This document shows positions 654-26,891 of a stretch of DNA of 35,644 bases, in pieces. The position numbers were made by a program, and so were the translations under genes. Source of the DNA: Haloterrigena salina JCM 13891 (lineage in GTDB: Archaea > Halobacteriota > Halobacteria > Halobacteriales > Natrialbaceae); NCBI RefSeq assembly GCF_000337495.1, contig NZ_AOIS01000065.1, forward strand, positions 1 to 35,644, written 5' to 3'. Positions within the stretch are counted from its first letter, which is position 1. Every line of letters starts with the position of its first letter. Under the pieces are notes generated by a model that saw nothing but the letters and a program-made list of their open reading frames with translations, made no database searches and had not been told where the DNA came from.

Positions 654-1733
654 ATGGCTGAGACGCGATCACTGGTGGCACTGCTTCCGCGGCCGGTTCG
701 GACGCTCCCGGCCGATCTCGCCGCCGTGTTCGCACTCGTGGTCCTGACGAACGTCGCCGCGCTCGCGCCCGTGCTCCGCGAGACGTCGCTTCGCGTCCCG
801 CTCGGGCTCGCGTTCGTCCTCTTCGTGCCCGGGTACGCGTTCATCGCGGCGCTGTTTCCCGAAGCCGGCGACGATCCGACCGCCGATCCGGAGGCCGACG
901 GCGATAGCGACGGGGACCTCGCCGACGGTGCGAATCGCGGCCCGCTCCCGGTCGGTTCCTTCCTCGACGATCGGTCGGGGATCGACGGCATCGAACGCGT
1001 CGCCCTCTCCTTCGGCCTCAGCATCGCCGTTACTCCCCTGATCGGTCTCGTGTTGAATTTCACGCCGTGGGGGATCCGGCTGACACCGATCATGCTCGCC
1101 ATCAGCGCGTTCACCGTCGGTGCGGCCGCCGTCGCCGCCGTTCGCCGGTGGGAGCTTCCCCCGGACGAGCGGTTCCGGGTTCCGTATCGCACGTGGTACG
1201 CGGCGGGCCGCGCCGAACTGTTCGAGCCGGACACCCGCGCGGACGCCGCGTTGAACGTCGTGTTGGTCCTCTCCCTACTGCTCGCGGTCGGCAGCGTCGG
1301 CTACGCGGTCGCGGTGCCGCCCGACGGCGAACAGTTCTCGGCCGTCTACCTCCTCACCGAGGACGACGACGGCGAGTTCACGGCCGACAACTACCCGACC
1401 GAGTTCACGCGGGGCGAATCCAAGGAGATCGTCCTTGGGGTCGACAACCACGAACACCGGACCGTCGACTACACCGTCGTGCTGGTCGAACAGCGGGTCT
1501 CGGTCGAGGACAACGAGACGACCGTCGAGGAGCAACGCGAACTCGACCGATTCGAGACCCGGCTCGGCCACAACGAGAGCTGGCACCATCAACACGAACT
1601 CGAGCCGACGATGACCGGGGAGAACGTTCGCCTCGTCTGGCTGCTCTACCCTGGCGGGGACGTCCCCGAGGAGCCGTCGGCGGACACGACGGAGTACTCG
1701 GCGCACCTCTGGGCCAACGTGAGCGAGGAGTAA
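654..1733 (+). CDS. DUF1616-family polytopic membrane protein
   Basis: A 359-aa protein. Hydrophobic segments are visible near residues 20-40, 45-67, 118-138, 143-165 and 198-222, with an acidic Asp/Glu/Gly-rich cytosol- or surface-exposed loop around 70-105. After the last membrane segment comes a soluble domain (about 225-359) with a beta-rich look that contains several N-x-S/T sequons (for example NET, NES, NVS), consistent with a surface-exposed, glycosylated domain. The architecture and the opening FVLFVPGYAF motif fit haloarchaeal DUF1616 proteins, often found near S-layer glycosylation genes; the biochemical function is unknown. The family assignment is from memory of the family pattern. 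ATG 654 is supported by the putative box at 623-628. Confidence 0.7.
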   Translation: MAETRSLVALLPRPVRTLPADLAAVFALVVLTNVAALAPVLRETSLRVPLGLAFVLFVPGYAFIAALFPEAGDDPTADPEADGDSDGDLADGANRGPLPVGSFLDDRSGIDGIERVALSFGLSIAVTPLIGLVLNFTPWGIRLTPIMLAISAFTVGAAAVAAVRRWELPPDERFRVPYRTWYAAGRAELFEPDTRADAALNVVLVLSLLLAVGSVGYAVAVPPDGEQFSAVYLLTEDDDGEFTADNYPTEFTRGESKEIVLGVDNHEHRTVDYTVVLVEQRVSVEDNETTVEEQRELDRFETRLGHNESWHHQHELEPTMTGENVRLVWLLYPGGDVPEEPSADTTEYSAHLWANVSEE

Positions 1734-9530: not shown

Positions 9531-10451
9531 CTATTCGGTGTAGGGTTCACAGACCTGTTCGACGCCTTCCTCGAGGGAGATCTGGGGTTCCCAGCCGGTT
9601 TCCTCGCGCATCTTGCTCGAGTCGGCGCAGGTGTCGTGGACGTACACTGAGTCGGGAATCGGGTTCTCGACGTACTCGGGGTCGATGTCGGTGCCGAGTT
9701 CGTCGTTGAGCATCTCGACGAGTTCGTTGAAGCTGTAGGCGTCGCCGGTGCCGAGGTTGTAGACGCCGGTGAGTTCGTGGTCGGCCGCGAGCTCGAGGCC
9801 GCGGACGATGTCGTCGACGTGGGTGAAGTCCCGCGTCTGGGTGCCGTCGCCGTAGAGGGCGGGCGCGTCGCCGCCGGCGAGGTCGTCGGCGAACTGGGCG
9901 ATCACGTTGGCGTACTCGCCCTTGTGTTCCTCGGCGCCGCCGTAGCCCTGGTAGACCGAGAAGAAGCGCATCCCGGCGACGTCCATGTCGTAGTGGTTCG
10001 CGAAGTACTCGCCGTAGCGCTCGCGGGCGAGCTTGGAGGCCTCGTAGCCGGTGTTGACCGAGACCGGCATATCCTCCGGGGAGGGCTCGGTCTGGCTCCC
10101 GTAGATGGAGGACGTGGAGGCGTAGACGACGGTGTCGCAGCCGTCCTGGCGGGCCTGGTCGACGACGTTGACGAATCCCTCGACGTTCACGCGGGCGCCC
10201 GTCGTGGGGTCCTCCTCGTGCATCGCGTACGACGAGAGCGCGGCGAGGTGGAAGACGACGTCGACGTCCGTCGGGAGGTCGTCCTCGAGGACGCTTCGGT
10301 TGCGGTAGTCGACGGACGACTCGAGGTTTTCGGCCGTGCCGAGGTACTCGTCGTCGATCGCGATGACGTCGTTGTCTTCGGCGAGGTGGTTCGCCAAATT
10401 GGAGCCGATAAACCCTGCTCCGCCCGTTATCAGGACGCGCTGGTTCTGCAT
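9531..10451 (-). CDS. NAD-dependent sugar-nucleotide epimerase/dehydratase
   Basis: A 306-aa protein of the extended SDR (GalE-like) family. The Rossmann glycine motif GGAGFIG is at residues 10-16, and the catalytic pair is Y136/K140 (YEASK) with Ser/Thr-rich STSSIYG just before it. A mid-chain GDGTQTRDFTHVDDIVRG motif is typical of UDP-glucose 4-epimerase-like enzymes that bind UDP- or dTDP-sugars. The chosen Met (10451) starts six residues before the first beta strand; the frame extends seven codons further without support. It probably makes a sugar donor for the glycosyltransferases of this island. The exact epimer (Glc/Gal, GlcA/GalA or other) cannot be told from the sequence. Confidence 0.9.
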   Translation of the reverse strand: MQNQRVLITGGAGFIGSNLANHLAEDNDVIAIDDEYLGTAENLESSVDYRNRSVLEDDLPTDVDVVFHLAALSSYAMHEEDPTTGARVNVEGFVNVVDQARQDGCDTVVYASTSSIYGSQTEPSPEDMPVSVNTGYEASKLARERYGEYFANHYDMDVAGMRFFSVYQGYGGAEEHKGEYANVIAQFADDLAGGDAPALYGDGTQTRDFTHVDDIVRGLELAADHELTGVYNLGTGDAYSFNELVEMLNDELGTDIDPEYVENPIPDSVYVHDTCADSSKMREETGWEPQISLEEGVEQVCEPYTE

Positions 10452-10588
10452 GTCAGCACAACTGGCAGCCACCTACGAGAACGCTACGGTCTTCAGCCGT
10501 TCGTGAGTCTCGGTCGTGTTGACGGGAGGCCTCGCTGCGAGTGGTGCTTCACCAGAACGAAAGAGGAAGCGGGGACCGGTTTCGGGCG

Positions 10589-11212: not shown

Positions 11213-12445
11213 ATGGCTTCAAAATCACACTCGGACGGTTCTACTTCGGCAGAGCAGGCTCCGGAGGCGGAGCAGGTCCTCGAGCATCGATCGGCGGACG
11301 AACTCCTGGTCGGTCGCGACAGCGACGTTAACCCGGAACTGTCCGTCGTGATGCCGACGTTGAACGAGGAGGAGGGAATCGAAACCTGTATCGGCTGGAT
11401 CAAGTCGGCCGTCGAGGAGTTGCAGTTGCCGACGGAGATCATCATCAGCGACAGTTCGACGGACCGAACGCCCGAGATCGCCCGCGAGATGGGTGCGATC
11501 GTCGTCGAGCCCGACCAGCCGGGGTACGGCTACGCGTACCGCTACGCCTTCGAGCGCGCTCGGGGCGAGTACATCGCGATGGGCGACGCCGACACGACCT
11601 ACGACTTCAAGGACATCCCGCGCCTACTCAGTCACCTCGAGGAGACCGGCGCGGACATGGTGATGGGCAGTCGCCTCGAGGGCGAGATCAGACCCGGTGC
11701 GATGCCGACATTGCATCAGTACATCGGCAATCCGCTGCTGACGAAGTTCCTGAACCTGTTCTACCGGGCCGGCGTGAGCGATGCCCACAGCGGGTTCCGC
11801 GTGTTCCGCCGGCAGGCCCTCGACGAGATGAACCTCGAGACGACCGGGATGGAGTTCGCCTCGGAGATGATCATGGAGGCCGGCGCGAAGGACCTCGTGA
11901 TCGAGGAGACGCCGATCATCTACCACGAACGCGAGGGCGAGGAGACCCTCGAGAGTTTCAAAGACGGGTGGCGCCACGTCCGATTTATGTTAGTTAATGC
12001 GCCGGGCTACCTGTTCTCGGCGCCCGGCCTACTGATGAGCCTACTCGGGATGGCCGTGATGGGCATCGCGTACAGCGGTGTCTCCATCGGCGAGGCGAGC
12101 CTGGGGATCCACTCGATGATCGCCGGCAGCCTGCTGACGATCGTCGGCTATCAGGTAGCGAGTCTCGGCGTGTTTGCTGCTGTTACCAGTGACCCGATCC
12201 AGAAGCCCGAGGACCCGATCACGGAACACGTGGTCGGCTCGTTGTCGCTCGAGCACGGCGCGACGGCCGGCGTCCTGGTGTTCGGCGTCGGCGGACTGTA
12301 CGCCGCGGGCCTGGTCTACCAGTGGGTCTCGAACGGGTTCGCCTCGCTCGAGTTCACGATGGGAGCATTGGTCGCCTTTACCGCGATCGTCATCGGCCTC
12401 CAGACCGTGTTCTCGTCGTTCTTCCTGAGTTCCGTCGACCGGTAG
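11213..12445 (+). CDS. Family 2 glycosyltransferase with C-terminal membrane helices (dolichyl-phosphate sugar synthase-like)
   Basis: A 410-aa protein. Residues 1-42 are an acidic extension; the GT-A domain follows: SVVMPTLNEEEG (about 44-55), a DAD metal motif at 125-127, and GSRLEGE and SGFRVFRR signatures typical of dolichyl-phosphate mannose/glucose synthases (GT2). From about residue 255 four hydrophobic segments follow, ending at residue 410. Such enzymes charge a polyprenyl phosphate with a sugar from a nucleotide donor on the cytoplasmic face; the lipid-linked sugar is later flipped and used for S-layer glycan synthesis. It stands between the two tRNA-like loci. No ribosome-binding site is obvious, and the ATG at 11213 was chosen by frame. 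Confidence 0.88.
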   Translation: MASKSHSDGSTSAEQAPEAEQVLEHRSADELLVGRDSDVNPELSVVMPTLNEEEGIETCIGWIKSAVEELQLPTEIIISDSSTDRTPEIAREMGAIVVEPDQPGYGYAYRYAFERARGEYIAMGDADTTYDFKDIPRLLSHLEETGADMVMGSRLEGEIRPGAMPTLHQYIGNPLLTKFLNLFYRAGVSDAHSGFRVFRRQALDEMNLETTGMEFASEMIMEAGAKDLVIEETPIIYHEREGEETLESFKDGWRHVRFMLVNAPGYLFSAPGLLMSLLGMAVMGIAYSGVSIGEASLGIHSMIAGSLLTIVGYQVASLGVFAAVTSDPIQKPEDPITEHVVGSLSLEHGATAGVLVFGVGGLYAAGLVYQWVSNGFASLEFTMGALVAFTAIVIGLQTVFSSFFLSSVDR

Positions 12446-12869: not shown

Positions 12870-13853
12870 TCAGCGAGTGGAAACGGTCTCCTCGAGCGTC
12901 ATCTCCGGTCCGACGAGTGCGGACTCGACATCCGTCGCGCGGATCTCCGTCTCCGTGTCGATCACCGATCGTTCGATCGTGCAGTCGGCGATCGTGGCGT
13001 CGGGGAAGACGACGCAGTCCCGCAGGGTCGCGTCGGTGACTCGGGCGCCCTCCATGACGTGCACGTTCGGGCCGATCGTCGTCCCCTCGAGCGACGCGTC
13101 GGGGTGGATCGCACTGTCGCCGTCGAACCGCCAGGCGACGGCGTCGAGGTAGCTCTCGGGCGTCCCGATGTCGTACCAGGCGCCGTCGAACGTGAACGCG
13201 TCGACGCGCTCCCGGTCGACGAGCCACTGGACGAACCAGCCCGGCTCGTCGGGATTGTTCTCCCCGTCCAGATACGTCTCGAGTAAGTCGAGGTCCGCCG
13301 CACGGAACCCGTAGCAGGCGACCGACACGAGCGTGCTCGGCGGGTCGTCGGGCTTCTCCTCGAAGGCGACGATCTCGCGGCCGTCGTCCTCGAGCTCGAG
13401 CACGCCGTAGGACGTCGCGCGGTCGTAGTCGCCGACGTCGTAGGCGGCGAGCGTCGGGGTCCGTCGTTGGCGGAAGAAGTCGACGAACTCGCTGACGCCG
13501 AAGCTGAGGAGGTTATCGCCCGCGATGACGATCGTGTCGTCCTCGAGGTTTTCGCGGTCGACGAGCTGGGCGAGCGCGCCGATGACGCCGAACTTCTCGT
13601 CCTCGTCGGTCGTGTCTTCGATCGAGAGCTGGGGTTTGTGGTACTCGTTGGTCTCGAGGTGGTCCTCGAACGCGTCCGCGAAGCGTTCGTTCGTCGAGAC
13701 GTAGACGTCGTCGATTCTAGTGTCGGTCTCGAGGTCCTCGAGCACGCCGTCGATCACGGTCGTGTCGCCGACCGGAAGGAACATCTTGGGCCGGTGTTTC
13801 GTGATCGGCCAGAGTCGTGTCGCGTAGCCGCCTGCGAGTACGATTGCATCCAT
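12870..13853 (-). CDS. Sugar-phosphate nucleotidyltransferase with a beta-helix tail
   Basis: A 327-aa protein. The first 23 residues carry the nucleotidyltransferase signature (MDAIVLAGGYATRLWP followed by KPK-like HRPKMFLPVG), which binds NTP and sugar-1-phosphate. The central metal Asp region IVIAGDNLLSF and the motif VVAFEEKPDDP follow. From about residue 240 there is a left-handed beta-helix with hexapeptide-like repeats (SAIHPDASLEGTTIGPNVHV). This fits glucose-1-phosphate thymidylyl/uridylyltransferases of haloarchaeal glycan loci; the nucleotide preference is not visible. The start at 13853 was preferred over an upstream frame extension because it begins the fold and lies about 25 bases after a TATA box. 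It marks the left edge of the AT-rich island. Confidence 0.88.
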   Translation of the reverse strand: MDAIVLAGGYATRLWPITKHRPKMFLPVGDTTVIDGVLEDLETDTRIDDVYVSTNERFADAFEDHLETNEYHKPQLSIEDTTDEDEKFGVIGALAQLVDRENLEDDTIVIAGDNLLSFGVSEFVDFFRQRRTPTLAAYDVGDYDRATSYGVLELEDDGREIVAFEEKPDDPPSTLVSVACYGFRAADLDLLETYLDGENNPDEPGWFVQWLVDRERVDAFTFDGAWYDIGTPESYLDAVAWRFDGDSAIHPDASLEGTTIGPNVHVMEGARVTDATLRDCVVFPDATIADCTIERSVIDTETEIRATDVESALVGPEMTLEETVSTR

Positions 13854-13874
13854 AGGCAATAGTTCTACGTTGTG

Positions 13875-13880
13875 TATATT
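13875..13880 (-). promoter_or_regulatory. Putative TATA box for the nucleotidyltransferase
   Basis: AATATA on the minus strand is centred about 25 bases before the ATG at 13853, consistent with a leaderless transcript. The region 13854-14071 is AT-rich and otherwise empty. Confidence 0.45.
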
Positions 13881-14071
13881 GCAATTTTCTATTTGATATA
13901 TATTGGTTTCCAGATTTCGCCCTAGTACTGGTGTCAAATGGAAATATGTTAACCTTTTTATAAAGAAATCAAAACATTACTAAGAGTTAGGAATTACTGT
14001 CTATAATGTGGGCCAGAAGACATTATGATGGATTCCGACAGAGAAATACTTACTGTGACTGACGATCCTTC

Positions 14072-15816: not shown

Positions 15817-17301
15817 ATGACTAAAAAGAGTGTGGCAGATATCGGCCAAGCAGGAGTAATTGTTTTATTAGGTACTATACTAAGCATGCTTTCGGGATTT
15901 CTGTTCCGTTTAATTGGGGCCAGATACCTCCCTACTGATCAGTTTGGATTGGTCGTTCTTGGCATCTCGCTTGTAAATATCGCATCTATACCTTGCATAT
16001 TAGGGCTAAATCAGGGTGTTGTTCGATTCATAGCTTCTGAAGATGACAGGTTTCAGAATTCATATATAACGGTATCAATCATAACCGTTCTGTCATTCAG
16101 TATAGTAGCTGTAGCTATTGGACTTATTTTCAAGGATACGGTAAATGAGACTATATTCGGGAATTCAGCTTCAGATGTATTATTATTTCTGTTCTTGATT
16201 ACAATCCCGCTTTTTTCTCTTTTAAAATTAATAACTGGTATTCTTAGAGGGGAAATGAATTCAAGCGGATTTGTCCACATTTCGAAAATCATCCGCCCAG
16301 GTATGAAACTATTGTTAACTATTGTAGCTGTTTTCATCTTCGGTACTAGTACTTCGGTGGCACTTGCATTTTTTTCCGCAATATTGATTACGGTTTTCTT
16401 TGGTCTTTATCTTATCTGGTATGAAGGATGGCGTCCTCAAGTGGATCGTTCTGCAGATTTCCTTTCTCTATATCGTTTCAGTTTCCCATTATTAATATCG
16501 TCCTCGATCTTTATTTTGCTCTCGTATGTGGACAAGATGTTAATTGGAGCCTATCAATCTCCAAATTCCGTAGCAATTTATGAAGTTACTGTGACGATTG
16601 CTAGTTTATTGGGCCTTTTTCGGTCAGCGTTCGGATTTCTACTCTACCCAAAACTTTCGGAACAAATATCAAGCGGAAATGAATCAATTGTTGGGAATAT
16701 GTATAAGCAAACGACGAAGTGGATCCTTTTACTCACCACTCCTGCTTTTGTTGTCCTTGTTTTCCGTCCTGATTTTCTCATCTATATATTTGGTAGTGAA
16801 TATAGTGTGAGTGAAATCTCGCCTGTTCTTTTTTTACTAAGTTCTGGCCTGTTCTTGAATGCGATTGTAGGACCGAATGGAGAAGCTCTATTAGGTTTCG
16901 GACGTTCCAGAGCAGTGCTAATTTACAATATATCGGCAGTAGCAATAAATATAGTTCTTAATATTATACTCATTCCAAGATTCGGTCTTTTTGGGGCAGC
17001 AGCAGCGTCACTGATTGGTTATACAATCATGAATGTTCTAAAGTCATTTGATCTGTATGCGTATCACCAAGTTTCTGTAATATCATCCAAGTCAATCTTG
17101 GCAGCGGCCACTATCTTTATTATCGGGGCAGTTGGAATCCAGATCCTTCCCGAAGGAATACCTCTTCCTCTAGAAGTTGTTGCACTATCTACTATTGGAA
17201 TTGGTTCGTCTATCATAGGAATTACTATTCTTTGGATTATTGGAGGTGTTTCAGATGAAGATCATGAGCTAGTCAATAGGCTAGTTGCTTATGTGTCCTA
17301 G
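15817..17301 (+). CDS. Polysaccharide/oligosaccharide flippase (MOP superfamily, Wzx-like)
   Basis: A 494-aa protein with about 14 hydrophobic segments, the hallmark of RfbX/Wzx-like flippases. It opens with GQAGVIVLLGTILSMLSGFL and a GARYLPTDQFGL loop typical of family members; a KML motif around residue 231 and a conserved GFGRSR loop near residue 362 also fit. It would move the lipid-linked glycan across the membrane for the locus's glycosyltransferases (the Haloferax counterpart is AglR-like). Its composition is strongly AT-rich compared with the neighbouring chromosome. ATG 15817 follows a purine-rich stretch (GAGAGATT). The exact substrate cannot be predicted. Confidence 0.9.
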   Translation: MTKKSVADIGQAGVIVLLGTILSMLSGFLFRLIGARYLPTDQFGLVVLGISLVNIASIPCILGLNQGVVRFIASEDDRFQNSYITVSIITVLSFSIVAVAIGLIFKDTVNETIFGNSASDVLLFLFLITIPLFSLLKLITGILRGEMNSSGFVHISKIIRPGMKLLLTIVAVFIFGTSTSVALAFFSAILITVFFGLYLIWYEGWRPQVDRSADFLSLYRFSFPLLISSSIFILLSYVDKMLIGAYQSPNSVAIYEVTVTIASLLGLFRSAFGFLLYPKLSEQISSGNESIVGNMYKQTTKWILLLTTPAFVVLVFRPDFLIYIFGSEYSVSEISPVLFLLSSGLFLNAIVGPNGEALLGFGRSRAVLIYNISAVAINIVLNIILIPRFGLFGAAAASLIGYTIMNVLKSFDLYAYHQVSVISSKSILAAATIFIIGAVGIQILPEGIPLPLEVVALSTIGIGSSIIGITILWIIGGVSDEDHELVNRLVAYVS

Positions 17302-17699: not shown

Positions 17700-19091
17700 T
17701 CATGAATTTATATATCCTAATTCCTCAAGTCGATCTTCAACATTGTCGGAAATATCTCCATTAGATGACTCACTGTCTGAATCATTTGTAATTTCAGCCA
17801 ATCGATCTTCTGCAATCCTTCTTAGTTTGTCCCCTATTTCTGGATGATCATCAACAACATTCTCCTTCTCCTTCTCGTCTTTCTTAAGATTGTATAATCT
17901 ATCCTTCTCTATTTGATTATTAAGAATATATTTCCATTCATCCGACCTAACACTAATAATCGCTTTGTCTCTGTTTATTGGCCCACCCAGTCCTTGGTCT
18001 GCAGAGTGGCAGAGTTCTGAAATAACTTTTGGATTTTCGTCACTTCTCCCTTCATCTAGTATGCTAAGTAACGATTCTCCTCGCCAATTGTCAGCTGGTG
18101 CTCTATCAAGAAGATCACAGACTGTCGGAGGTATATTGAGTAAGGATGTTGGCCTACGTATGTTTTTCTCCGCTATATCAGATGAGGTGCTGTATACAAT
18201 CAGAGGAACATTCACTAGTTCTTCATAGAGCTTAGGCTGGTGTCCAAAATGACCATGCTCAAAGAATTCCTCTCCATGATCTGCACAGATAATAACAGTA
18301 ACTTCCTCTAAATGTCTCTTTGCACCTTCAACCAGTCTCTTTATTTCCCTATCAAGGAATTTGGCTTCCGATTTATAGTATTTTTCCATACTCGAACGGA
18401 CCGATTTCGGTATTATACTTGATGTATCTTCAGGGGTTGTGGGTGAATTCACCTTGGGTTTGTTTTTATTGTAGCTGTCTATATGTTTGTTTACTGTAGG
18501 GATCCCCTCTGATGGGCTACCAAATTGAAATTCCTCAGGAGGGAAATAAGGGGTATGAGTTTCCATATAGTGCGCCCAGAGAAAGTTATCATTTTTATTG
18601 CATTTGTTGAGTTCGGATAGCGCTGTATCAGTCACTTCATTAGCAGGAGTATATGATGGACTGTTGTCGGAATCAAACATTTTCTCACCGATTTTTATTG
18701 CTTTTTCCCCGAGCCGCAGAAGCCAATCATTTTCCCTGATGACCTTCCGAATTTCTCCCAAGTATGAGTTATCAACATTGTCATTCCATCTATTGAATCC
18801 TCGATTGAAATTATAGATACTTGAGGTAGGAAGGCTACTTGAAATACCAATAGTAGTTGAATCAAGTTGCTCTGCCAGCGTGACATGCTCTGGACGGAAT
18901 TTTGCGTACCCATAATCCATTGGTAGCGAACTTGCTAGAATTCCTGGAAAAGATGAAGAAGTTCCGGATCCAGTTGAGATAGCATTGTCAAATGTCACTC
19001 CTTCCTTTGATATTTTAGATAGGTATGGTGTGTGAGACCCACTCACGAGATCTTTTCTAAAAGCGTCTAATGTGATGAGTAGTACATTCAT
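17700..19091 (-). CDS. Alkaline-phosphatase-superfamily enzyme, sulfatase-like, with Thr at the nucleophile position
   Basis: A 463-aa protein. The N-terminus MNVLLITLDAFRKD supplies a metal Asp (D9). The nucleophile region is T44-S-S-S-F-P49-G-I-L, where canonical sulfatases read C-x-P-S-R; Thr stands at the Cys position and the following Arg is missing. The second metal motif is ADHGEEFFEHGHFGH (about residues 270-285), and LxxSLL/DVLPT-type features follow. The tail ends EDRLEELGYIN, shared with two other AlkP proteins in the window. The chain is AT-rich. It probably cuts or transfers a phosphoryl- or sulfuryl-linked group on a surface glycan; the Thr argues against formylglycine sulfatase chemistry. 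No signal peptide is visible, so it may act inside. Confidence 0.85.
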   Translation of the reverse strand: MNVLLITLDAFRKDLVSGSHTPYLSKISKEGVTFDNAISTGSGTSSSFPGILASSLPMDYGYAKFRPEHVTLAEQLDSTTIGISSSLPTSSIYNFNRGFNRWNDNVDNSYLGEIRKVIRENDWLLRLGEKAIKIGEKMFDSDNSPSYTPANEVTDTALSELNKCNKNDNFLWAHYMETHTPYFPPEEFQFGSPSEGIPTVNKHIDSYNKNKPKVNSPTTPEDTSSIIPKSVRSSMEKYYKSEAKFLDREIKRLVEGAKRHLEEVTVIICADHGEEFFEHGHFGHQPKLYEELVNVPLIVYSTSSDIAEKNIRRPTSLLNIPPTVCDLLDRAPADNWRGESLLSILDEGRSDENPKVISELCHSADQGLGGPINRDKAIISVRSDEWKYILNNQIEKDRLYNLKKDEKEKENVVDDHPEIGDKLRRIAEDRLAEITNDSDSESSNGDISDNVEDRLEELGYINS

Positions 19092-19459
19092 AGCTAGGTA
19101 CTATATCCAAATGGTTAAAATTCTATCGGATAAATTTCGTAGTATTATCTATACTATCTTATTATGCCACCATATATAGTTCTGGCATCTAATGTATATT
19201 TTGTGTCGGAATGGAGGCTGTGACTATGGAGTGGAGTTTTGAGACCTAATGGAGAACCATCAGAAACATGGTATCTATGTTGGGTTTTCTTGAAACAATT
19301 TAGTTAAATGAATCAACAGTAGCTATAGGTTTTACTCTATTGAATTGCGTCAGTAATCTTCATCCTAGTCTGAATAGTAGAATATATATGGTGGTTATAA
19401 AAAGACTAGGGTTGCTTGATTTGATAAGATATATCTGTGAGATGCTCTATCAGTGAGGT
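19092..19459. other. AT-rich divergent intergenic region
   Basis: This 368-base region lies between the minus-strand AlkP gene and the plus-strand pyruvyl-transferase-like gene. It is very AT-rich, with several TATA-like runs (for example ATATATATGG near 19382 and AGATATATC near 19428) that could drive the plus-strand operon. I see no gene. Confidence 0.45.
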
Positions 19460-20458
19460 ATGAAAATAGTCTTACTACGGACCTGGCTGACAAATATTGG
19501 AAATGGGTTTATCGATAAGGGTGCTCAAACAATACTAAGAAAGGCCTTCCCAGACTCAGAAATTATTGAGGTAAGTGGATACCCTAACTTCACTGCTGGT
19601 CGAAAAGATACTGGTATCTTCCCAACAGTGCAAAACAAGTTATCCAATAAACTCTTAGGAAATAGCAGACCAGATCAGTCATATTTAGATCGAACAATAA
19701 ATGTCAGTGAATACATTGATGCCGATCTAGCTGTGCTGCCAGGATGTATATTGTATGACCATGTCATAGAAAAGTACTCAAATGTTCTACAATCTCTAAA
19801 GGATAGAGATGTTCCGATAGTTCTTCTCGGAGTAGGCGGCGGCGATTATCAACCGAAAACACAGAGGTATGTCAAAAGTTTCCTAAGAGAGATCGAACCA
19901 ATTGGCATGATAACTCGAGACTCTAATGCATATAATGCATACAAAAGCGATGTCGATAACACTTATGATGGAATTGATTGTGCATTCTTTATTAACGATT
20001 GGTATGAACCGCCAGAGACCGAACATAACTTCACAGTCCTTACATTCGACAAAATAGATGAGCCTAAAAAACTCTCATACAAAAGCGACATAATACGCAC
20101 AGATCATTTTCCTTTTGAGCAGCCGCACGGAACCCTATGGAAAAAGGTGAAGAAAATGCGAAAGCAATCGCCTTTCTACAAAGAAGACAACATTTTTGTA
20201 TCTGACTCTATCAAAGATTATCTTTTCTTCTATTCTAACGCAAATGTAACTCATTCTGACCGAATACATGCGTGCTTACCAACGCTTGCCTATGGAAATA
20301 AAGCAAAGTTCTGGTTTGATACACCACGAGGTGCCTTATTTGATAAAGTCCTTGATGAAGATATCCACACAAACCAAGTGAGATTGGATGAAGACAAGGT
20401 AGATAGGTTAAAGTCAGAACAGGTTGAAGCAATCCAGAACATTGTGTCGGAGATGTAA
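19460..20458 (+). CDS. Polysaccharide pyruvyl transferase-like protein
   Basis: A 332-aa protein. The N-terminus (LRTWLTNIGNGFIDKGAQTI) carries the N-x-G-N/D pattern that starts polysaccharide pyruvyl transferase (CsaB/PssM-like) domains. A glycine-rich LGVGGGDYQPK segment lies near residue 123, and the late signature SDRIHACLPTLAYG (around 272-285) is the typical [ST]xRxHa motif. Such enzymes add ketal-linked pyruvate from PEP to sugars, making the glycan acidic; some family members are glycosyltransferases instead, so the reaction is not certain. It is first in a plus-strand unit with GT4 and AlkP genes (15-base gap, then an 8-base overlap). Codon use is AT-rich. A GAGGT stretch directly abuts ATG 19460. 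Confidence 0.8.
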   Translation: MKIVLLRTWLTNIGNGFIDKGAQTILRKAFPDSEIIEVSGYPNFTAGRKDTGIFPTVQNKLSNKLLGNSRPDQSYLDRTINVSEYIDADLAVLPGCILYDHVIEKYSNVLQSLKDRDVPIVLLGVGGGDYQPKTQRYVKSFLREIEPIGMITRDSNAYNAYKSDVDNTYDGIDCAFFINDWYEPPETEHNFTVLTFDKIDEPKKLSYKSDIIRTDHFPFEQPHGTLWKKVKKMRKQSPFYKEDNIFVSDSIKDYLFFYSNANVTHSDRIHACLPTLAYGNKAKFWFDTPRGALFDKVLDEDIHTNQVRLDEDKVDRLKSEQVEAIQNIVSEM

Positions 20459-20473
20459 ACAACTCTGAGTTAC

Positions 20474-21595
20474 ATGATGGCCCAAGATCACAATCGAATA
20501 CTCATCCTTTCTGGTCAGTTAGGAGCTGCCGGAACCCCACAAGTTTTGCTGAATATAACAAAACACCTGAGAAAAGAAACTGATATAGAAATTGCATATC
20601 TTGGTGGGAAGAGCGAATTAGTCCCAGAGTTCCAAGATTTGGGCGTCCCTGTCCACCGGTTGGGGGAGACTCCGATCTCAATCGAATCCCTATTGTCATT
20701 ACGCCGTCTTTTGAAGGATAGAAAATACGATTTACTTCATACTCATATGATGGCTGGTGGGCTAATTGGCCGTATTATTGGAAGAATAGTGGGGATTCCC
20801 GTTGTTTCGACTATACATACATCATATCCAAACCGACCCTATAGAGCAAAAATTCCTGATTTAGCGACTAGTCCGCTTGCAGAGATGAATATTTGCGTAT
20901 CTAATGCAGTGGAACAGTCACTTCCAAGAACATACAAACTCGGATCCCGAACAAAAGTTGTGCATAATTGCATAGATGTTGATCAAATACGGCAGGAGGG
21001 GATGAAGGAGTGGGATAGTCTTGATTGGACAACAAATGTTGAAAAAGATGCACCACTAATTGCGAATGTCGCGCGATATGATCCAAAGAAACGTCGTAAA
21101 GACTTAATCAAATCACTTCCGCTTATTTTAGAAGAGCACCCCTCTGCCACCATTATATTTACTGGCGATGGACAGGGAAAGGAAGAACTCCAAATGCTTG
21201 CTAGAAAGTATGATGTTCATGATAATATAGCTTGTGTTGGATTTGTTGAGAATCCTCAATCGGTCTATCATCACGCAGATCTTGTCGCACTTCCATCCAT
21301 CTCCGAGGGATTTAGTATTAGTATGTTGGAAGCAATGGCACATGGAAAACCAATCGTTGCTACCAGTATCCCACCATTCCAAGAAGCACTTGGTGAAGAT
21401 CATCCATTTGTGGAACCATGTTCGCCCCAAGAACTGGGAGAGAAAATACGTCAAGTTCTATCAGACGAAAGCTTTGCAGAAGAGTTGGGAGAAAAGGCAT
21501 TTGCCCGTGTCCAAAAGAATTTTTCTGGCGAATCTGCAGCAATCAAGTATAGACGGATATACCAATCTGTTCTAGACACTGCTAACAATGAATAA
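20474..21595 (+). CDS. Family 4 glycosyltransferase
   Basis: A 373-aa GT-B protein. The N-terminal domain begins ILILSGQLGAAGTPQVLLNI (a donor-independent Gly-rich loop), a hinge follows CIDVDQIR (about 165-172), and the C-terminal domain carries PSISEGFSISMLEAMAHGKP with the E-x7-E motif (around 278-288), which binds the nucleotide sugar. It has no membrane helix and is probably attached to the membrane's inner face. A second ATG lies directly after the first (20474/20477). It follows the pyruvyl-transferase-like gene by 15 bases and overlaps the AlkP gene by 8 bases, so the three are likely co-transcribed. Codon use is AT-rich. The sugar is unknown. Confidence 0.9.
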   Translation: MMAQDHNRILILSGQLGAAGTPQVLLNITKHLRKETDIEIAYLGGKSELVPEFQDLGVPVHRLGETPISIESLLSLRRLLKDRKYDLLHTHMMAGGLIGRIIGRIVGIPVVSTIHTSYPNRPYRAKIPDLATSPLAEMNICVSNAVEQSLPRTYKLGSRTKVVHNCIDVDQIRQEGMKEWDSLDWTTNVEKDAPLIANVARYDPKKRRKDLIKSLPLILEEHPSATIIFTGDGQGKEELQMLARKYDVHDNIACVGFVENPQSVYHHADLVALPSISEGFSISMLEAMAHGKPIVATSIPPFQEALGEDHPFVEPCSPQELGEKIRQVLSDESFAEELGEKAFARVQKNFSGESAAIKYRRIYQSVLDTANNE

Positions 21596-23201
21596 AAACA
21601 AACAGAACCAAGTAATCCTGATTGGTCTTGATGGGTTAGATTGGTCTGAAATCAATGATTGGGTCAATAGTAGAGATCTAAGAACAATTAATGATATTGC
21701 CAATGAGAAAAAATCTATAAATCTGCAGAGCACTAACCCTCCATGGACTCCTTGTGCCTGGCCATCACTTCTCAGTGGGCGCAATCCAGGCAAACATGGC
21801 GTCTTTGATTTCTTCACTCAAGACGGATACAAGAAGCAGCTTATTGAGCGTCCGAATGTTAATGCACCCTATCTGTTTGAAGTAGCTGACGCAGAAGAGT
21901 ACACATCGATCGCCATCAATTATCCAGTTACACATCCCGCATCCGCGCTTGAGAACGGTGCAATTGTCCCCGGCTATCTCGCACGCGAAGATATTCCGTT
22001 CTATCCAAAGGATCTCAGAGACGAATATGAGTCCGAGTACGGTAAGTACGTTATCTATCCCGAATACGGAACTGAAGATGACGCCGTCAGCGAATATGTC
22101 GATACCGCTCGACACCGACGGGATATGGCGCAATTCCTCGACAAACGTTACGACTGGGACTTAATGGCGGTCCAGTTCCAAGTTACTGATTCGATCTTCC
22201 ACGATCTAAACGACCGCGAAAAGATCCGCCAGATCCTCGAGAAAGTCGATGAATACGTTGGAGATATAATCGAACTCGGCGGAGATGATCCGACTGTCTT
22301 CATTGCGTCGGATCACGGTATGGGTGACTACGAGTGGACGTTTTACGTGAACTCGTGGCTCGCTGAGCACGGATACTGCGAAACGACAACAGGTAACGCT
22401 CAGTACTTCCGACAACAGAAGAAGACACTGAAGAGGACAGATGACGAAACCGAGGAATCCAGTCCCCTCGAAAGTGCTATCGGAACAGCAGCGAGTACCC
22501 TCTCGAAGGTTGGACTCTCACCTCACCACGTCCATCGGGGCCTTTCCGCAGTCGGGCTTGCGAAGACCGTTGAGCGAATTCTTCCTGAAGACGCGCTCGT
22601 CGCCGCACAGAACCAGGTCGTCGATCACGCCAATTCGGAGGCCTTCCAGTTGTATTTCAACAGTCTCGGAGTACACCTGAATGTCGAAGGCCGAGATCCG
22701 AGCGGCCAGATCCCGGAATCAGAGTACGAAGAAACACGCGACGAACTCATCGCGGAACTCGAGCAGGTTCGCGATCCCGATGGGAATCTCGTCTTCGATG
22801 CCGTTCGTCCTCGAGAGGAGGTCTACGAGGGCGAGCACGTAGAGGATGCGCCGGATATCGTCCTCGTCCCGCGAGACTATCAGTACGATGTCAGCGGCTC
22901 AATTCTAGATACGTTCCGACGATATCCGCACAAGAACCACAAGCCGGACGGGATCCTACTCTCGAACCGAGAACTGACGTGTGACGACCGCGCCGAAATC
23001 TACGACATCGCACCAACCGTCGCGGCAGCGCTCGGGATCCCTGTCGATACGAACACTGATGGGGAAGTCCTCCTCGACGGAATCGACGATATCGAACGTG
23101 CGGATTGGGACGAATTGGCAGAAGGATATGGAACCACAGGATCCGACACAGACATGTCGGGTGTCGAGGACCGACTCGCGGATCTCGGGTATATGGAGTG
23201 A
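21588..23201 (+). CDS. AlkP-superfamily phosphodiesterase/phosphotransferase-like enzyme (compositional mosaic)
   Basis: A 537-aa protein. The metal Asp is D15 (LIGLDGLDW); the nucleophile is T54 in W-T-P-C-A-W-P-S-L-L-S-G, the Thr pattern of nucleotide pyrophosphatase/phosphodiesterase enzymes; SDHGMGD supplies further metal ligands near residue 241. The chain ends EDRLADLGYME, like the other AlkP proteins here. The first 100 or so codons are AT-rich, like the upstream genes, while codons from about 150 onward have the high third-position GC of the chromosome, so the edge of the AT-rich island lies inside this gene. It overlaps the upstream GT4 gene by 8 bases. Role: probably removal or transfer of a phospho-group on a glycan or its carrier. 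Confidence 0.88.
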   Translation: MNKNKQNQVILIGLDGLDWSEINDWVNSRDLRTINDIANEKKSINLQSTNPPWTPCAWPSLLSGRNPGKHGVFDFFTQDGYKKQLIERPNVNAPYLFEVADAEEYTSIAINYPVTHPASALENGAIVPGYLAREDIPFYPKDLRDEYESEYGKYVIYPEYGTEDDAVSEYVDTARHRRDMAQFLDKRYDWDLMAVQFQVTDSIFHDLNDREKIRQILEKVDEYVGDIIELGGDDPTVFIASDHGMGDYEWTFYVNSWLAEHGYCETTTGNAQYFRQQKKTLKRTDDETEESSPLESAIGTAASTLSKVGLSPHHVHRGLSAVGLAKTVERILPEDALVAAQNQVVDHANSEAFQLYFNSLGVHLNVEGRDPSGQIPESEYEETRDELIAELEQVRDPDGNLVFDAVRPREEVYEGEHVEDAPDIVLVPRDYQYDVSGSILDTFRRYPHKNHKPDGILLSNRELTCDDRAEIYDIAPTVAAALGIPVDTNTDGEVLLDGIDDIERADWDELAEGYGTTGSDTDMSGVEDRLADLGYME

Positions 23202-23219
23202 GACCGTCGAAGACGTCGT

Positions 23220-24353
23220 TCAGTTTGTGGAAGTGATCCGTTCGTAAATCCGATTCGTCTGTTCGGCGACGCCCTCCCACGAGTACTCGTCCTCGACTAG
23301 TTCGTATGCATTTGCGGCCCACTCTTCTCTCTCGTCTCCGTTCGATAGTGCGTACTGAATCGCGTCTGCAAGTTCACTCGGTGATTTCGGCGGGACGAGA
23401 TATCCGGTCTCTTCGTGATCGACGAATTCAGCAATTCCTTCGACATCGCTCGTGATAACCGGGACCTCTCCTGCCCACGCCTCGAGCAGCGTCAACGGAT
23501 GCCCTTCCCAAACCGATGGGAGTACGAATAGGCGAGCTCTCCGGTAGTATCGTGGGATGGCTTCGTCGGAGACGCGACCCTCGAAGCGAACGCGATCGTC
23601 GATACCCAGGCGGTTCGCCTGCGCTTTCAACTCGTCGCTCTTCGGTCCGGTGCCGACGATGACGAGATCGGTCTCGGGAACGTCGTCGGCGATACGATTG
23701 AACGCATCGATAAGATCGCTCACTCGCTTCTTCGGCGCGAGTCGGCCGAGGAACAGAATCTCGTCACGTCGATCGACGTCGACATCGAACCGCTCGAGAT
23801 TGACGCCGTTCGGAACGCACGAGAGATTTGTGTGATGCTCACCGAGGAGATCGAGATGCTCCGTATTGACCGAGATCACGTGATCGTAGTCGAAGTTAAG
23901 CACGAACAGTCGCTCGAGGCGACGTTTGACGTGAGCGAGCATCGATTCGTCACGGCCGACACCGGAGGTAAGCGCCGTTCCGTGCACGGTAAAGACCGTC
24001 GACGCGTCCGTAAGCGCGCCACCGGTTCGCGTCGGAACTGCCGGTAAGAACGTATGTCCGTGGACGACATCGAAATCCTCCGTCAGCAGATGCGGTACTG
24101 GTGTTCCGAGTGACGAAACGCGACCGAGCGGATTCCAGTATTCTGTCGACGGCTTCAGTCGGTGGACTCGTACGGCCCCGTCGACGAATGTGTCCGTACT
24201 AGTATGGGCCTGTCCATCTTTCTCGAGAGCCCGCGTGTAGATGTCGATCGTGTGATCGAACTGTTTCGCGAGCGCAATCGAGAGCTCCTTGACGTGGACT
24301 GGTCCGCCGCCGGTACGCGGCCACCAGTCGTCCTGAATCATCGCAATTCTCAT
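23220..24353 (-). CDS. Family 4 glycosyltransferase
   Basis: A 377-aa GT-B enzyme. It opens MRIAMIQDDWWPRTGGGPVH with the Gly-rich donor loop, continues with HGTALTSGVGRDE and LFLGRLAPKKR (the start of the GT4 C-terminal domain, about residue 203), and has the catalytic E-x7-E region PSVWEGHPLTLLEAWAGEVP (around 285-304). It is soluble and probably peripheral. Codon use is high GC, typical of the host. It lies four bases downstream of the AlkP gene on the same strand, so both form one transcript. The 3' end converges with the mosaic AlkP gene, 18 bases apart. The sugar specificity is unknown. Confidence 0.92.
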   Translation of the reverse strand: MRIAMIQDDWWPRTGGGPVHVKELSIALAKQFDHTIDIYTRALEKDGQAHTSTDTFVDGAVRVHRLKPSTEYWNPLGRVSSLGTPVPHLLTEDFDVVHGHTFLPAVPTRTGGALTDASTVFTVHGTALTSGVGRDESMLAHVKRRLERLFVLNFDYDHVISVNTEHLDLLGEHHTNLSCVPNGVNLERFDVDVDRRDEILFLGRLAPKKRVSDLIDAFNRIADDVPETDLVIVGTGPKSDELKAQANRLGIDDRVRFEGRVSDEAIPRYYRRARLFVLPSVWEGHPLTLLEAWAGEVPVITSDVEGIAEFVDHEETGYLVPPKSPSELADAIQYALSNGDEREEWAANAYELVEDEYSWEGVAEQTNRIYERITSTN

Positions 24354-24357
24354 TGTA

Positions 24358-25623
24358 TTATTCTTTGTACCCCAGCGCTTCCAGTCGTCGATCGATCTCC
24401 TCGTCGACGTCCCCGGAATCGGCTACGTCCTCGCCATTTTCTTTCCCGATACGGATCTCGACGTGCCCCTCGAGTTCGCTGCGAAGCGACCGAGACGTAC
24501 AATCAGAAAACGAGATTGCCTCCGTCTCCTGATCGCGTTCGCAGAAACAGGCACCGTCTGCGGTCCGAAGTGCGTATCGTCGGACGTGACTCGCATCGTC
24601 TTCACCCCGTGCCTGCATGAATACGGTTCGATCTTCCTCGAGTGATTCGAGGAGGGACGCTCCTTCGTGATCACTGCCAGCGGAAACCGACTCTTCGATC
24701 GTTGCAGCGATATCCAGTGTACTAGCTGGTATCGATACCTCGTCGTCAGCACCTCCAGGAGGTCGAACCATCAGTGGGACGTGCGTAATCTCGTCGTGAA
24801 GATATCGTGGATGCTCGTAGTATCCATGCTCACCGAATGCGTCGCCGTGATCGGCAGTGAAAATGAGCAACGATCGCTCGAGTAGATCTCGCCTTCGTAA
24901 CTCCTCGAGGAACTCACCGATTCGCTTGTCGTTGTATCGAATCTCGGCGTCATAGAGCGCGATCAACAACTCTTGCTCTTCCTCGGTGATCGAGTCAGGA
25001 TCCTTGATCGCCCGGCGGTACAGCGACTGTGCGTCTCGGCCAGATAATCCCTCGTCGTGGTATAACTGCTCGTACTCACCCGGTGGCTCGTATGGGCCGT
25101 GTGTATCCATGTAGTGATTCCAGAGGAAGAACGGTTCATCGTCCTCGACGGAATCGATCCACGAAAGGGATCGCTCGTTGATCTCCTCGGCTCGAGCGTA
25201 GTGACGATTCCGCAGTTTGTCGAGTGCCCGCTGGGCCAACGCGATGAGCTTGTGCTTCCCGAAATGCAGATCGTCGTCGAACTCGTCGAATCCATGATCG
25301 AAGCCGTACGCGCGGGAGATGAACGGATTCGAGTGGAAGCCACCGGTAGCAAATCCGTGTTCGGAGAGCGTCGAGGCGATCGTATCGGTCGCAAGCCGAT
25401 AGTCAGAGCCGACCGCAGTGTCCGGATATTCGCCGGTCAACAGTGCGGGGACTGCTTCCCTCGTATGCGAACTCGCACTGTAGGCGTTGGTGAAGTGAAT
25501 ACTCTCCTCGGCTAATTCGTCGAGAACGGGGGACGTGTCTCGATGATAGCCGTGACACGAGAGATGATCTGCTCTCAGTGCATCCGCCGAGAGCAGAATA
25601 ATATTGTCCCAGTCGTCAGGCAT
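24358..25623 (-). CDS. Alkaline-phosphatase-superfamily enzyme, sulfatase-like, Thr nucleophile position
   Basis: A 421-aa protein from ATG 25623; the frame extends 24 codons upstream, but the box at 25648-25655 supports the shorter form. The metal Asp is D14 (LLSADALRAD); the nucleophile region is T54-R-E-A-V-P59-A-L-L-T-G, again Thr where sulfatases have Cys/Ser; TADHGDAFGEHGYYEH gives the second metal site; WNHYMDTHGPY is a familiar sulfatase-fold segment. The tail ends IDRRLEALGYKE. The protein is first in a two-gene unit with the GT4 gene at 23220. It is most similar in layout to the AlkP protein at 17700 but uses host-like GC-rich codons. Probably glycan modification. Confidence 0.88.
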   Translation of the reverse strand: MPDDWDNIILLSADALRADHLSCHGYHRDTSPVLDELAEESIHFTNAYSASSHTREAVPALLTGEYPDTAVGSDYRLATDTIASTLSEHGFATGGFHSNPFISRAYGFDHGFDEFDDDLHFGKHKLIALAQRALDKLRNRHYARAEEINERSLSWIDSVEDDEPFFLWNHYMDTHGPYEPPGEYEQLYHDEGLSGRDAQSLYRRAIKDPDSITEEEQELLIALYDAEIRYNDKRIGEFLEELRRRDLLERSLLIFTADHGDAFGEHGYYEHPRYLHDEITHVPLMVRPPGGADDEVSIPASTLDIAATIEESVSAGSDHEGASLLESLEEDRTVFMQARGEDDASHVRRYALRTADGACFCERDQETEAISFSDCTSRSLRSELEGHVEIRIGKENGEDVADSGDVDEEIDRRLEALGYKE

Positions 25624-25754: not shown

Positions 25755-26891
25755 ATGGATATTGCGTTCGTCTCGAACGTCGTTTTCCCGTTCGTCAAAG
25801 GGGGTGCCGAAAAGCGAATTCACGAAATCGGTACTCGACTCGCAGCTAACGGTCACGACGTCACGGTATACGGTCGTCACTACTGGGACGGGCCGCAGGT
25901 AATGGAGTACGACGGACTCACGCTTTACGGAGTAGCCCCCGCTAAAGAACTCTACGACGACGAACGACGGTCGATCACGGAAGCGATCGACTTCTCCGCG
26001 CGTCTACTCCCCCACCTTCGACGAACTGCCGACGATCACGATGTCATCGTCGCCTCTCTGTTCCCCTATTTCCCAGTGCTCGCCGCTAAACTCACAGCAC
26101 TGGGTACTGACACACCACTGGTCACGACCTGGCACGAGGTCTGGCTCGACTACTGGGACGAGTACCTCGGTCGACTCGCGCCGTTCGGGAAAGCAGTCGA
26201 AGGACTCACCGCGAAAACGCCACACTATCCGATCGCTATCTCGAGCGTCACCGCCGACCGCCTTACGGAGATCAGCCCGTCTCGAGACGAAATCGAAATC
26301 GTCCCCAACGGGATCGATGTCGACCAGATCGAAGCAACTCAGCCTGCCGAAGACGGGTTCGACGTCCTCTATGCAGGGCGACTTATCGAGCACAAGAACG
26401 TCGATTACCTCCTCGAGGCGTTCGACCGGATCGCCGAAACCGACCCGAATATTACACTAGGTATCATCGGCGATGGCCCAGAACGCGACGCTCTCGAACG
26501 CCAGGCCCAAAACCTAACCCATGCCGACCGAGTGACGATGCTCGGCTTCCTCGAGGAGTACGACGACGTTCTCGCACACATGCGCGCAGCGGACGTCTTC
26601 GCCTCGCCGTCTACTCGTGAAGGCTTCGGGATCACGTTCGCGGAGGCGATGGCCGCGGATTGTACCGTCATCGCAGCGGAACATCCCGAGTCCGCCGCCT
26701 CCGAAGTGATCGACGACGCGGGATTCCTCGCCTCACCGACGGTCGACGACGTAACCGATGTCCTCGAGCGCGCACTCTCGGGCGAACGACCAAATACGGA
26801 GCCGACGGCTCGAGCCCAGCGATACGACTGGGACGCCGTCGCTGAACAGGCAGAGCAGTGCTACCAACGGGCGATTGACGGTAACTGGTAG
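25755..26891 (+). CDS. Family 4 glycosyltransferase
   Basis: A 378-aa GT-B protein. It begins MDIAFVSNVVFPFVKGGAEK with the donor Gly-rich loop (VKGGAEKR), a hinge DVDQIEATQ after GIDV (about 195), LYAGRLIEHKNVDYL at the start of the C-terminal domain, and the nucleotide-sugar region PSTREGFGITFAEAMAADC (around 293-311) with E-x7-E. Codon use is host-like. It is divergent from the AlkP-GT4 pair, 131 bases away, and is the last glycan gene on the right. Acceptor and donor are unknown; GT4 enzymes are retaining. Confidence 0.92.
   Translation: MDIAFVSNVVFPFVKGGAEKRIHEIGTRLAANGHDVTVYGRHYWDGPQVMEYDGLTLYGVAPAKELYDDERRSITEAIDFSARLLPHLRRTADDHDVIVASLFPYFPVLAAKLTALGTDTPLVTTWHEVWLDYWDEYLGRLAPFGKAVEGLTAKTPHYPIAISSVTADRLTEISPSRDEIEIVPNGIDVDQIEATQPAEDGFDVLYAGRLIEHKNVDYLLEAFDRIAETDPNITLGIIGDGPERDALERQAQNLTHADRVTMLGFLEEYDDVLAHMRAADVFASPSTREGFGITFAEAMAADCTVIAAEHPESAASEVIDDAGFLASPTVDDVTDVLERALSGERPNTEPTARAQRYDWDAVAEQAEQCYQRAIDGNW

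What the first reader, a model, noticed from the sequence alone, without database searches (positions are those of the whole stretch)
17700..25623. Three 'sulfatase-like' enzymes with Thr at the formylglycine position
Aligning on the conserved LL[TS]G turn (IL-A-S in 17700), the residue seven before it is Thr in all three (T44, T54, T54), with Pro five after the Thr and no CxPxR motif. Sulfatases need Cys or Ser there for formylglycine. Thr is the nucleophile of nucleotide pyrophosphatases/phosphodiesterases and of phosphoethanolamine and glycerol-phosphate transferases. The locus may therefore add or remove phospho-substituents on its glycan rather than sulfate, a decoration scarcely described in archaea.
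Basis: partly seen in the sequence, partly recalled or inferred. Interest (0 to 1): 0.7.

Follow-up and report, generated by a model that had tools for sequence, protein, structure and literature searches.

The report
Thr-type sulfatase-like glycan-modifying enzymes
Three enzymes in a haloarchaeal sugar-coat gene cluster do carry threonine where true sulfatases carry cysteine or serine, but this is the usual state of such proteins, and the nearest tested archaeal relatives add sulfate to glycans, so the residue alone does not show that they handle phosphate.

Summary
T44 (A, 17700-19091), T54 (B, 21588-23201) and T54 (C, 24358-25623) sit at the formylglycine position in profile alignments and are invariant in 31 of 31 aligned sequences each. 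It is not special to this locus: 89 of 98 haloarchaeal PF00884-type relatives have Thr, and a 2016 paper reports Thr in 30 of 59 PF00884 seed sequences. The inference 'phosphate, not sulfate' does not follow. In Halobacterium salinarum the AlkP-fold proteins Agl30 and Agl31 are experimentally supported N-glycan sulfotransferases; in their orthologues the same position holds Ser, and Agl30's family uses Ser or Thr. A and C lack EptA/LtaS-type membrane anchors and share Agl31's active-site set apart from Thr for Ser. Best reading: A and C transfer a charged group to lipid-linked glycan, sulfate more likely than phosphate. B is different (PF01663, two-metal, NPP-like) and probably does phospho-chemistry. 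B and C each travel with a particular glycosyltransferase across haloarchaea. Unexplained: nearly all Thr/Ser AlkP proteins, A, B and C included, end in a conserved RLxxLGY tail, absent from the two Cys-type sulfatases here.

The parts
17700..19091 (-). A: AlkP-superfamily 'sulfatase-like' protein, 463 aa, no TM or signal peptide; T44 codon 18960-18962; LGY tail 17712-17720
   Evidence: PF00884 1.3e-27; T44 31/31; closest relatives only 34-36% identical
19460..20458 (+). polysaccharide pyruvyl transferase-like protein
   Evidence: PF04230 2.5e-11
20474..21595 (+). GT4 glycosyltransferase
   Evidence: PF00534/PF13439
21588..23201 (+). B: type I phosphodiesterase/NPP-like protein, 537 aa; T54 codon 21747-21749; LGY tail 23184-23192
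   Evidence: PF01663 2.6e-37; D15, T54, D201, H205, D242, H243, H451 conserved; PDB profile hits phosphonoacetate hydrolase and NPP
23220..24353 (-). GT4 glycosyltransferase that accompanies B (10 of 10 loci)
   Evidence: PF00534 3.7e-46
24358..25623 (-). C: AlkP-superfamily 'sulfatase-like' protein, 421 aa from the ATG; T54 codon 25462-25464; LGY tail 24367-24375
   Evidence: PF00884 5.9e-45; T54 invariant; AlphaFold2 pLDDT 66.8, pTM 0.74, T54 at the start of helix 54-63; best structural matches choline sulfatase Z 31.5, PMH Z 30.8
25755..26891 (+). GT4 glycosyltransferase that accompanies C (9 of 10 intact C loci)
   Evidence: PF00534 1.9e-34
15817..17301 (+). Wzx/MATE-type flippase
   Evidence: PF01943 1.4e-23
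11213..12445 (+). GT2 glycosyltransferase resembling AglJ / dolichyl-phosphate hexose transferase
   Evidence: PF00535 3.8e-27; TIGR04182 below its cut-off
9531..10472 (-). NAD-dependent sugar epimerase/dehydratase
   Evidence: PF01370 1.9e-48
12870..13937 (-). sugar nucleotidyltransferase
   Evidence: PF00483 1.7e-38

Best explanation
A and C are cytosolic AlkP-fold group transferases of a glycan-assembly locus. A metal-activated Thr attacks a donor, forms a covalent sulfo- or phospho-Thr intermediate, and passes the group to a sugar of the lipid-linked glycan before the flippase exports it. By analogy with Agl30/Agl31 the group on A and C is more likely sulfate than phosphate (about 55:25, the rest hydrolases). 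B is a separate, NPP-type two-metal enzyme, more likely to make or cut a phosphate ester. B and C each decorate the sugar laid down by the glycosyltransferase they travel with. Shown here: alignment of the Thr, its conservation, lack of membrane segments, gene pairing, AlkP fold of C, equivalence of the position with the putative nucleophile of the Agl30/31 orthologues. Inferred: covalent intermediate, acceptor, donor, chemical group, partnership with the transferases.
For: Agl30/Agl31 are AlkP-superfamily proteins of the Hbt. salinarum aglB cluster; deletion and heterologous expression show N-glycan sulfation, and NMR assigned 2S/3S sulfates, added at the dolichol-phosphate stage (PMC11980604). 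Their Hbt. salinarum DSM 3754 orthologues (L162/L182) have Ser at the position aligned to C's T54: Agl31 in the alignments, Agl30-like family by hhalign, prob 99.2, E 1e-19. In the Agl30-like family Ser (9) and Thr (3) interchange, and Ser arises within Thr clades at three places. A, C and Agl31 share D14, R17, D19, H175, D258, H259, H271, whereas the alignable Cys-type sulfatase has Lys at the last position. A, B and C have no TM or signal, as for Agl31, shown soluble and cytosolic. B-GT4 pairing 10/10; C-GT4 9/10. PF13469 is absent from 15 genomes including Hbt. salinarum, which sulfates glycans.
Against: A and C are in a different clade from Agl31 and are no orthologues of it or Agl30 (A-Agl31 22% identity). 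The studied sulfotransferases carry Ser, not Thr, here, so Thr could mark another group. In the parts of the paper read, no catalytic residue was tested by mutation. No PAPS pathway was found: APS-kinase hits are mostly partial P-loop matches, so the sulfate donor is unknown. No biochemical data exist for A, B or C.
Confidence: 0.48

Rival explanations
1. One reading: all three move phospho-groups (phosphoglycerol, phosphoethanolamine, sugar phosphate) on or off the glycan, with Thr as phosphoryl-accepting nucleophile as in EptA, LtaS and NPP.
For: Thr invariant; weak EptA/MCR similarity of C; C matches the PMH fold, Z 30.8; B matches phosphonoacetate hydrolase and NPP.
Against: No membrane anchor; A and C are nearer to sulfatases/PMH (E 1e-36 to 1e-48) than to LtaS (about 1e-16) by profile; the only tested archaeal analogues add sulfate.
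Confidence: 0.27
2. They are hydrolases (phosphodiesterase/phosphatase or editing enzymes) that trim or recycle glycan intermediates or nucleotide sugars in the cytosol.
For: Most characterised AlkP-superfamily members are hydrolases (own knowledge); B has a complete NPP-like ligand set; no signal peptide.
Against: Agl30/31 precedent of net transfer; separate pairing of B and C with particular glycosyltransferases suits a biosynthetic step better.
Confidence: 0.2
3. They are formylglycine sulfatases with an unusual residue.
For: PF00884 match; best structural matches are sulfatases.
Against: No Cys/Ser and no CxPxR; no FGE (PF03781) in the genome; His in place of the sulfatase Lys; Thr oxidation would give a ketone, not formylglycine (PMC5066984).
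Confidence: 0.03

Closest known systems
Agl31 (VNG1057C), Hbt. salinarum N-glycan sulfotransferase
   Same: AlkP/PF00884 fold, soluble cytosolic, glycan cluster, same active-site residues, LGY tail
   Different: Ser instead of Thr at the nucleophile position; separate clade; 22% identity to A
Agl30 (VNG1056C), Hbt. salinarum N-glycan sulfotransferase
   Same: AlkP superfamily, [ST]xE[WF] position aligns to C's T54, LGY tail
   Different: shorter, one N-terminal membrane helix, barely matches PF00884
EptA/MCR and LtaS phospho-transferases
   Same: Thr nucleophile, AlkP fold
   Different: membrane-anchored, catalytic domain outside the cell; only distant similarity
Choline sulfatase (6fny) and phosphonate monoester hydrolase (2vqr)
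   Same: closest solved folds of C, Z about 31
   Different: Cys-derived formylglycine nucleophile
NPP / phosphonoacetate hydrolase (PF01663)
   Same: B: Thr nucleophile and two-metal ligand set
   Different: B matches the solved ones only weakly (E 1e-4 to 1e-7), has an extra C-terminal part and LGY tail

Membership tests
Formylglycine-dependent sulfatase (S1) | Cys or Ser in (C/S)xPxR | tested here: not met
   Thr in A and C, no xPxR
Formylglycine-dependent sulfatase (S1) | maturation enzyme FGE in the genome | tested here: not met
   PF03781 absent in own genome; anSME not tested
Alkaline phosphatase superfamily | core fold, metal Asp/Asp-His, nucleophile at helix start | tested here: met
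   (structure for C only)
EptA/LtaS phospho-transferases | membrane-anchored enzyme with external catalytic domain | tested here: not met
   no hydrophobic segment of TM strength in A, B, C
EptA/LtaS phospho-transferases | Thr nucleophile | tested here: met
   position met by alignment; catalytic role not tested
NPP / type I phosphodiesterase (B) | PF01663 over cut-off with two-metal ligand set D, T, D, H, D, H, H | tested here: met
   third His (H451) placed by conservation only
Agl30/Agl31-type archaeal glycan sulfotransferase | AlkP fold with Ser/Thr nucleophile position in a glycan locus | tested here: met
Agl30/Agl31-type archaeal glycan sulfotransferase | orthology to Agl30 or Agl31 | tested here: not met
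   separate clade from Agl31; Agl30 is a distinct short family
Agl30/Agl31-type archaeal glycan sulfotransferase | sulfate transfer to glycan | not testable with these tools
   needs deletion plus glycan mass spectrometry

The most novel reading that the evidence does not exclude
The Thr/Ser AlkP proteins with the RLxxLGY tail, found in archaea and in bacterial-type relatives, form one large class of cytosolic glycan group-transferases (sulfate and phosphate) recruited through a shared C-terminal tail, and B adds a phosphodiester group to a haloarchaeal surface glycan.
Probability: 0.2. Interest if true: 0.68.

Novelty: new member of a known kind. Interest (0 to 1): 0.38.

Why it matters
Databases name many such proteins 'sulfatase'. 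If most are transferases that build charged glycans, the annotation has the chemistry backwards, and haloarchaeal surface charge gets a large enzyme set to test. The residue alone cannot tell sulfate from phosphate, which this case makes explicit. The shared LGY tail is a simple, testable handle on how these enzymes are recruited.

Tried and rejected
Single-sequence AlphaFold of B failed (pLDDT 32) and was not used. Viral-contig scans gave only distant relatives; the two hits with B were short chance matches in long phage tail-type proteins. Literature searches for archaeal phospho-glycans and for an LGY motif found nothing usable in the held library. The idea that Thr is a special feature of this locus was rejected by the genome census.

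Full report
What is there. The window lies in a haloarchaeal genome (G000, contig C65). The three ORFs are real: A 17700-19091 (-), B 21588-23201 (+), C 24358-25623 (-). A and C match PF00884; B matches PF01663, so it is not 'sulfatase-like' in the same sense. The surroundings are a glycan-assembly locus: sugar epimerase, nucleotidyltransferase, AglJ-like GT2, Wzx-type flippase, pyruvyl-transferase-like protein and three GT4 enzymes. The genome's only AglB hit is on another contig, C31, with its own set of AlkP genes, so this is a second glycan locus.

The observation. Thr sits at the formylglycine position in A and C by profile alignment to solved sulfatases, and B aligns Thr to Thr with A. 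It is invariant in 31 of 31 sequences of each family. The AlphaFold2 model of C (pLDDT 66.8, pTM 0.74, nine-sequence alignment, weak C-terminal part) puts T54 at the start of a helix, the usual place of the AlkP nucleophile, and matches choline sulfatase and phosphonate monoester hydrolase at Z about 31.

How special it is. Not very. In 98 PF00884-like proteins of the fetched loci the column reads 89 T, 6 S, 2 C. In this genome only two are Cys-type (CTSAR in L006, CSPSR in L007), and no FGE gene was found. The SulfAtlas paper reports Thr in 30 of 59 PF00884 seed sequences and warns that the profile has caused false 'sulfatase' annotation (PMC5066984).

What it means. A 2025 paper shows that Agl30 and Agl31 of Hbt. 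salinarum, both AlkP-superfamily proteins of the aglB cluster, are N-glycan sulfotransferases, by deletion and by expression in Hfx. volcanii; the sulfates were assigned by NMR, and Agl31 is cytosolic (PMC11980604). I found their orthologues in Hbt. salinarum DSM 3754 (L162/L182): adjacent genes, one soluble PF00884 protein and one 326-aa protein whose most hydrophobic segment starts at residue 23, against 21-39 in the paper. This assignment rests on species, gene adjacency and membrane segment, not on a named locus tag. Agl31 has Ser in the Thr column. The Agl30-like family aligns to C (prob 99.2) and shows Ser in nine and Thr in three of twelve members. Ser also appears at three places inside Thr clades. 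So Ser and Thr interchange, and the other active-site residues of Agl31 are those of A and C, including a His where the Cys-type sulfatase L006 has Lys.

Mechanism. A and C are most simply cytosolic transferases acting on the lipid-linked glycan: donor to Thr, Thr to sugar hydroxyl. Lack of any membrane segment fits Agl31 and not EptA or LtaS. I favour sulfate over phosphate for A and C on precedent, but they are in a different clade from Agl31 and carry Thr, so the matter is open. B has the conserved set D15, T54, D201, H205, D242, H243, H451 and aligns to phosphonoacetate hydrolase and NPP; phospho-chemistry is likelier there.

Gene pairing. In the twelve cassette loci, B always has the 23220-type GT4 beside it (10 of 10), and intact C has the 25755-type GT4 in 9 of 10. 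C occurs without B in G091 and G055, and B without C in G104. C orthologues at 74-78% identity also sit on plasmids of Natrinema, Halopiger and Halarchaeum. The two modules can therefore spread separately, each as transferase plus AlkP enzyme. A is rarer; its closest relatives are 34-36% identical.

The tail. A, B and C all end in RLxxLGY plus two to three residues. In the fetched loci 137 of 148 AlkP ORFs have LGY in the last twelve residues against 2 of 919 other ORFs. The sample is of relatives, so the figure is not independent per protein, but the own-genome census taken by Pfam shows the same: 18 of 18 intact Thr/Ser types (two of them short Agl30-like ones) have it; both Cys types, a phosphoglycerate-mutase-like protein and one other (L017) lack it. 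Three relatives from viral contigs, bacterial in type, have it too. Agl30 and Agl31 orthologues have it. I know of no described function and found none in the held papers.

Verdict. Observation confirmed, interpretation partly supported. Known kind of enzyme, new uncharacterised families, with an unexplained shared tail worth testing.

Noticed in passing
window 17712-17720, 23184-23192, 24367-24375; and most AlkP ORFs in fetched loci: Conserved C-terminal RLxxLGY tail on Thr/Ser-type AlkP proteins of two Pfam families and of the short Agl30-like family; absent from the two Cys-type sulfatases of the genome.
   Followed up: partly
G000:C45, L011 1459-2949 and 2953-3999: The window's own genome has an adjacent Agl31-like (Ser) and Agl30-like gene pair, as in Hbt. 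salinarum.
   Followed up: partly
G000:C31 8777-9399, L012/L015: A broken A/C-like gene (in-frame TAG) near AglB.
   Followed up: no
L175 10291-12648: In G164 the C gene is a short fragment between a partial and a full copy of its partner GT4, suggesting recent decay or rearrangement.
   Followed up: no
L007 1483-2910 and L006 1147-2736: Two Cys-type sulfatases in a genome without a detectable FGE gene; another maturase such as anSME may serve them.
   Followed up: no
window 654-1733: DUF1616 protein, strong Pfam match (9e-121); a homologue (56%) lies beside the cassette in L174.
   Followed up: no
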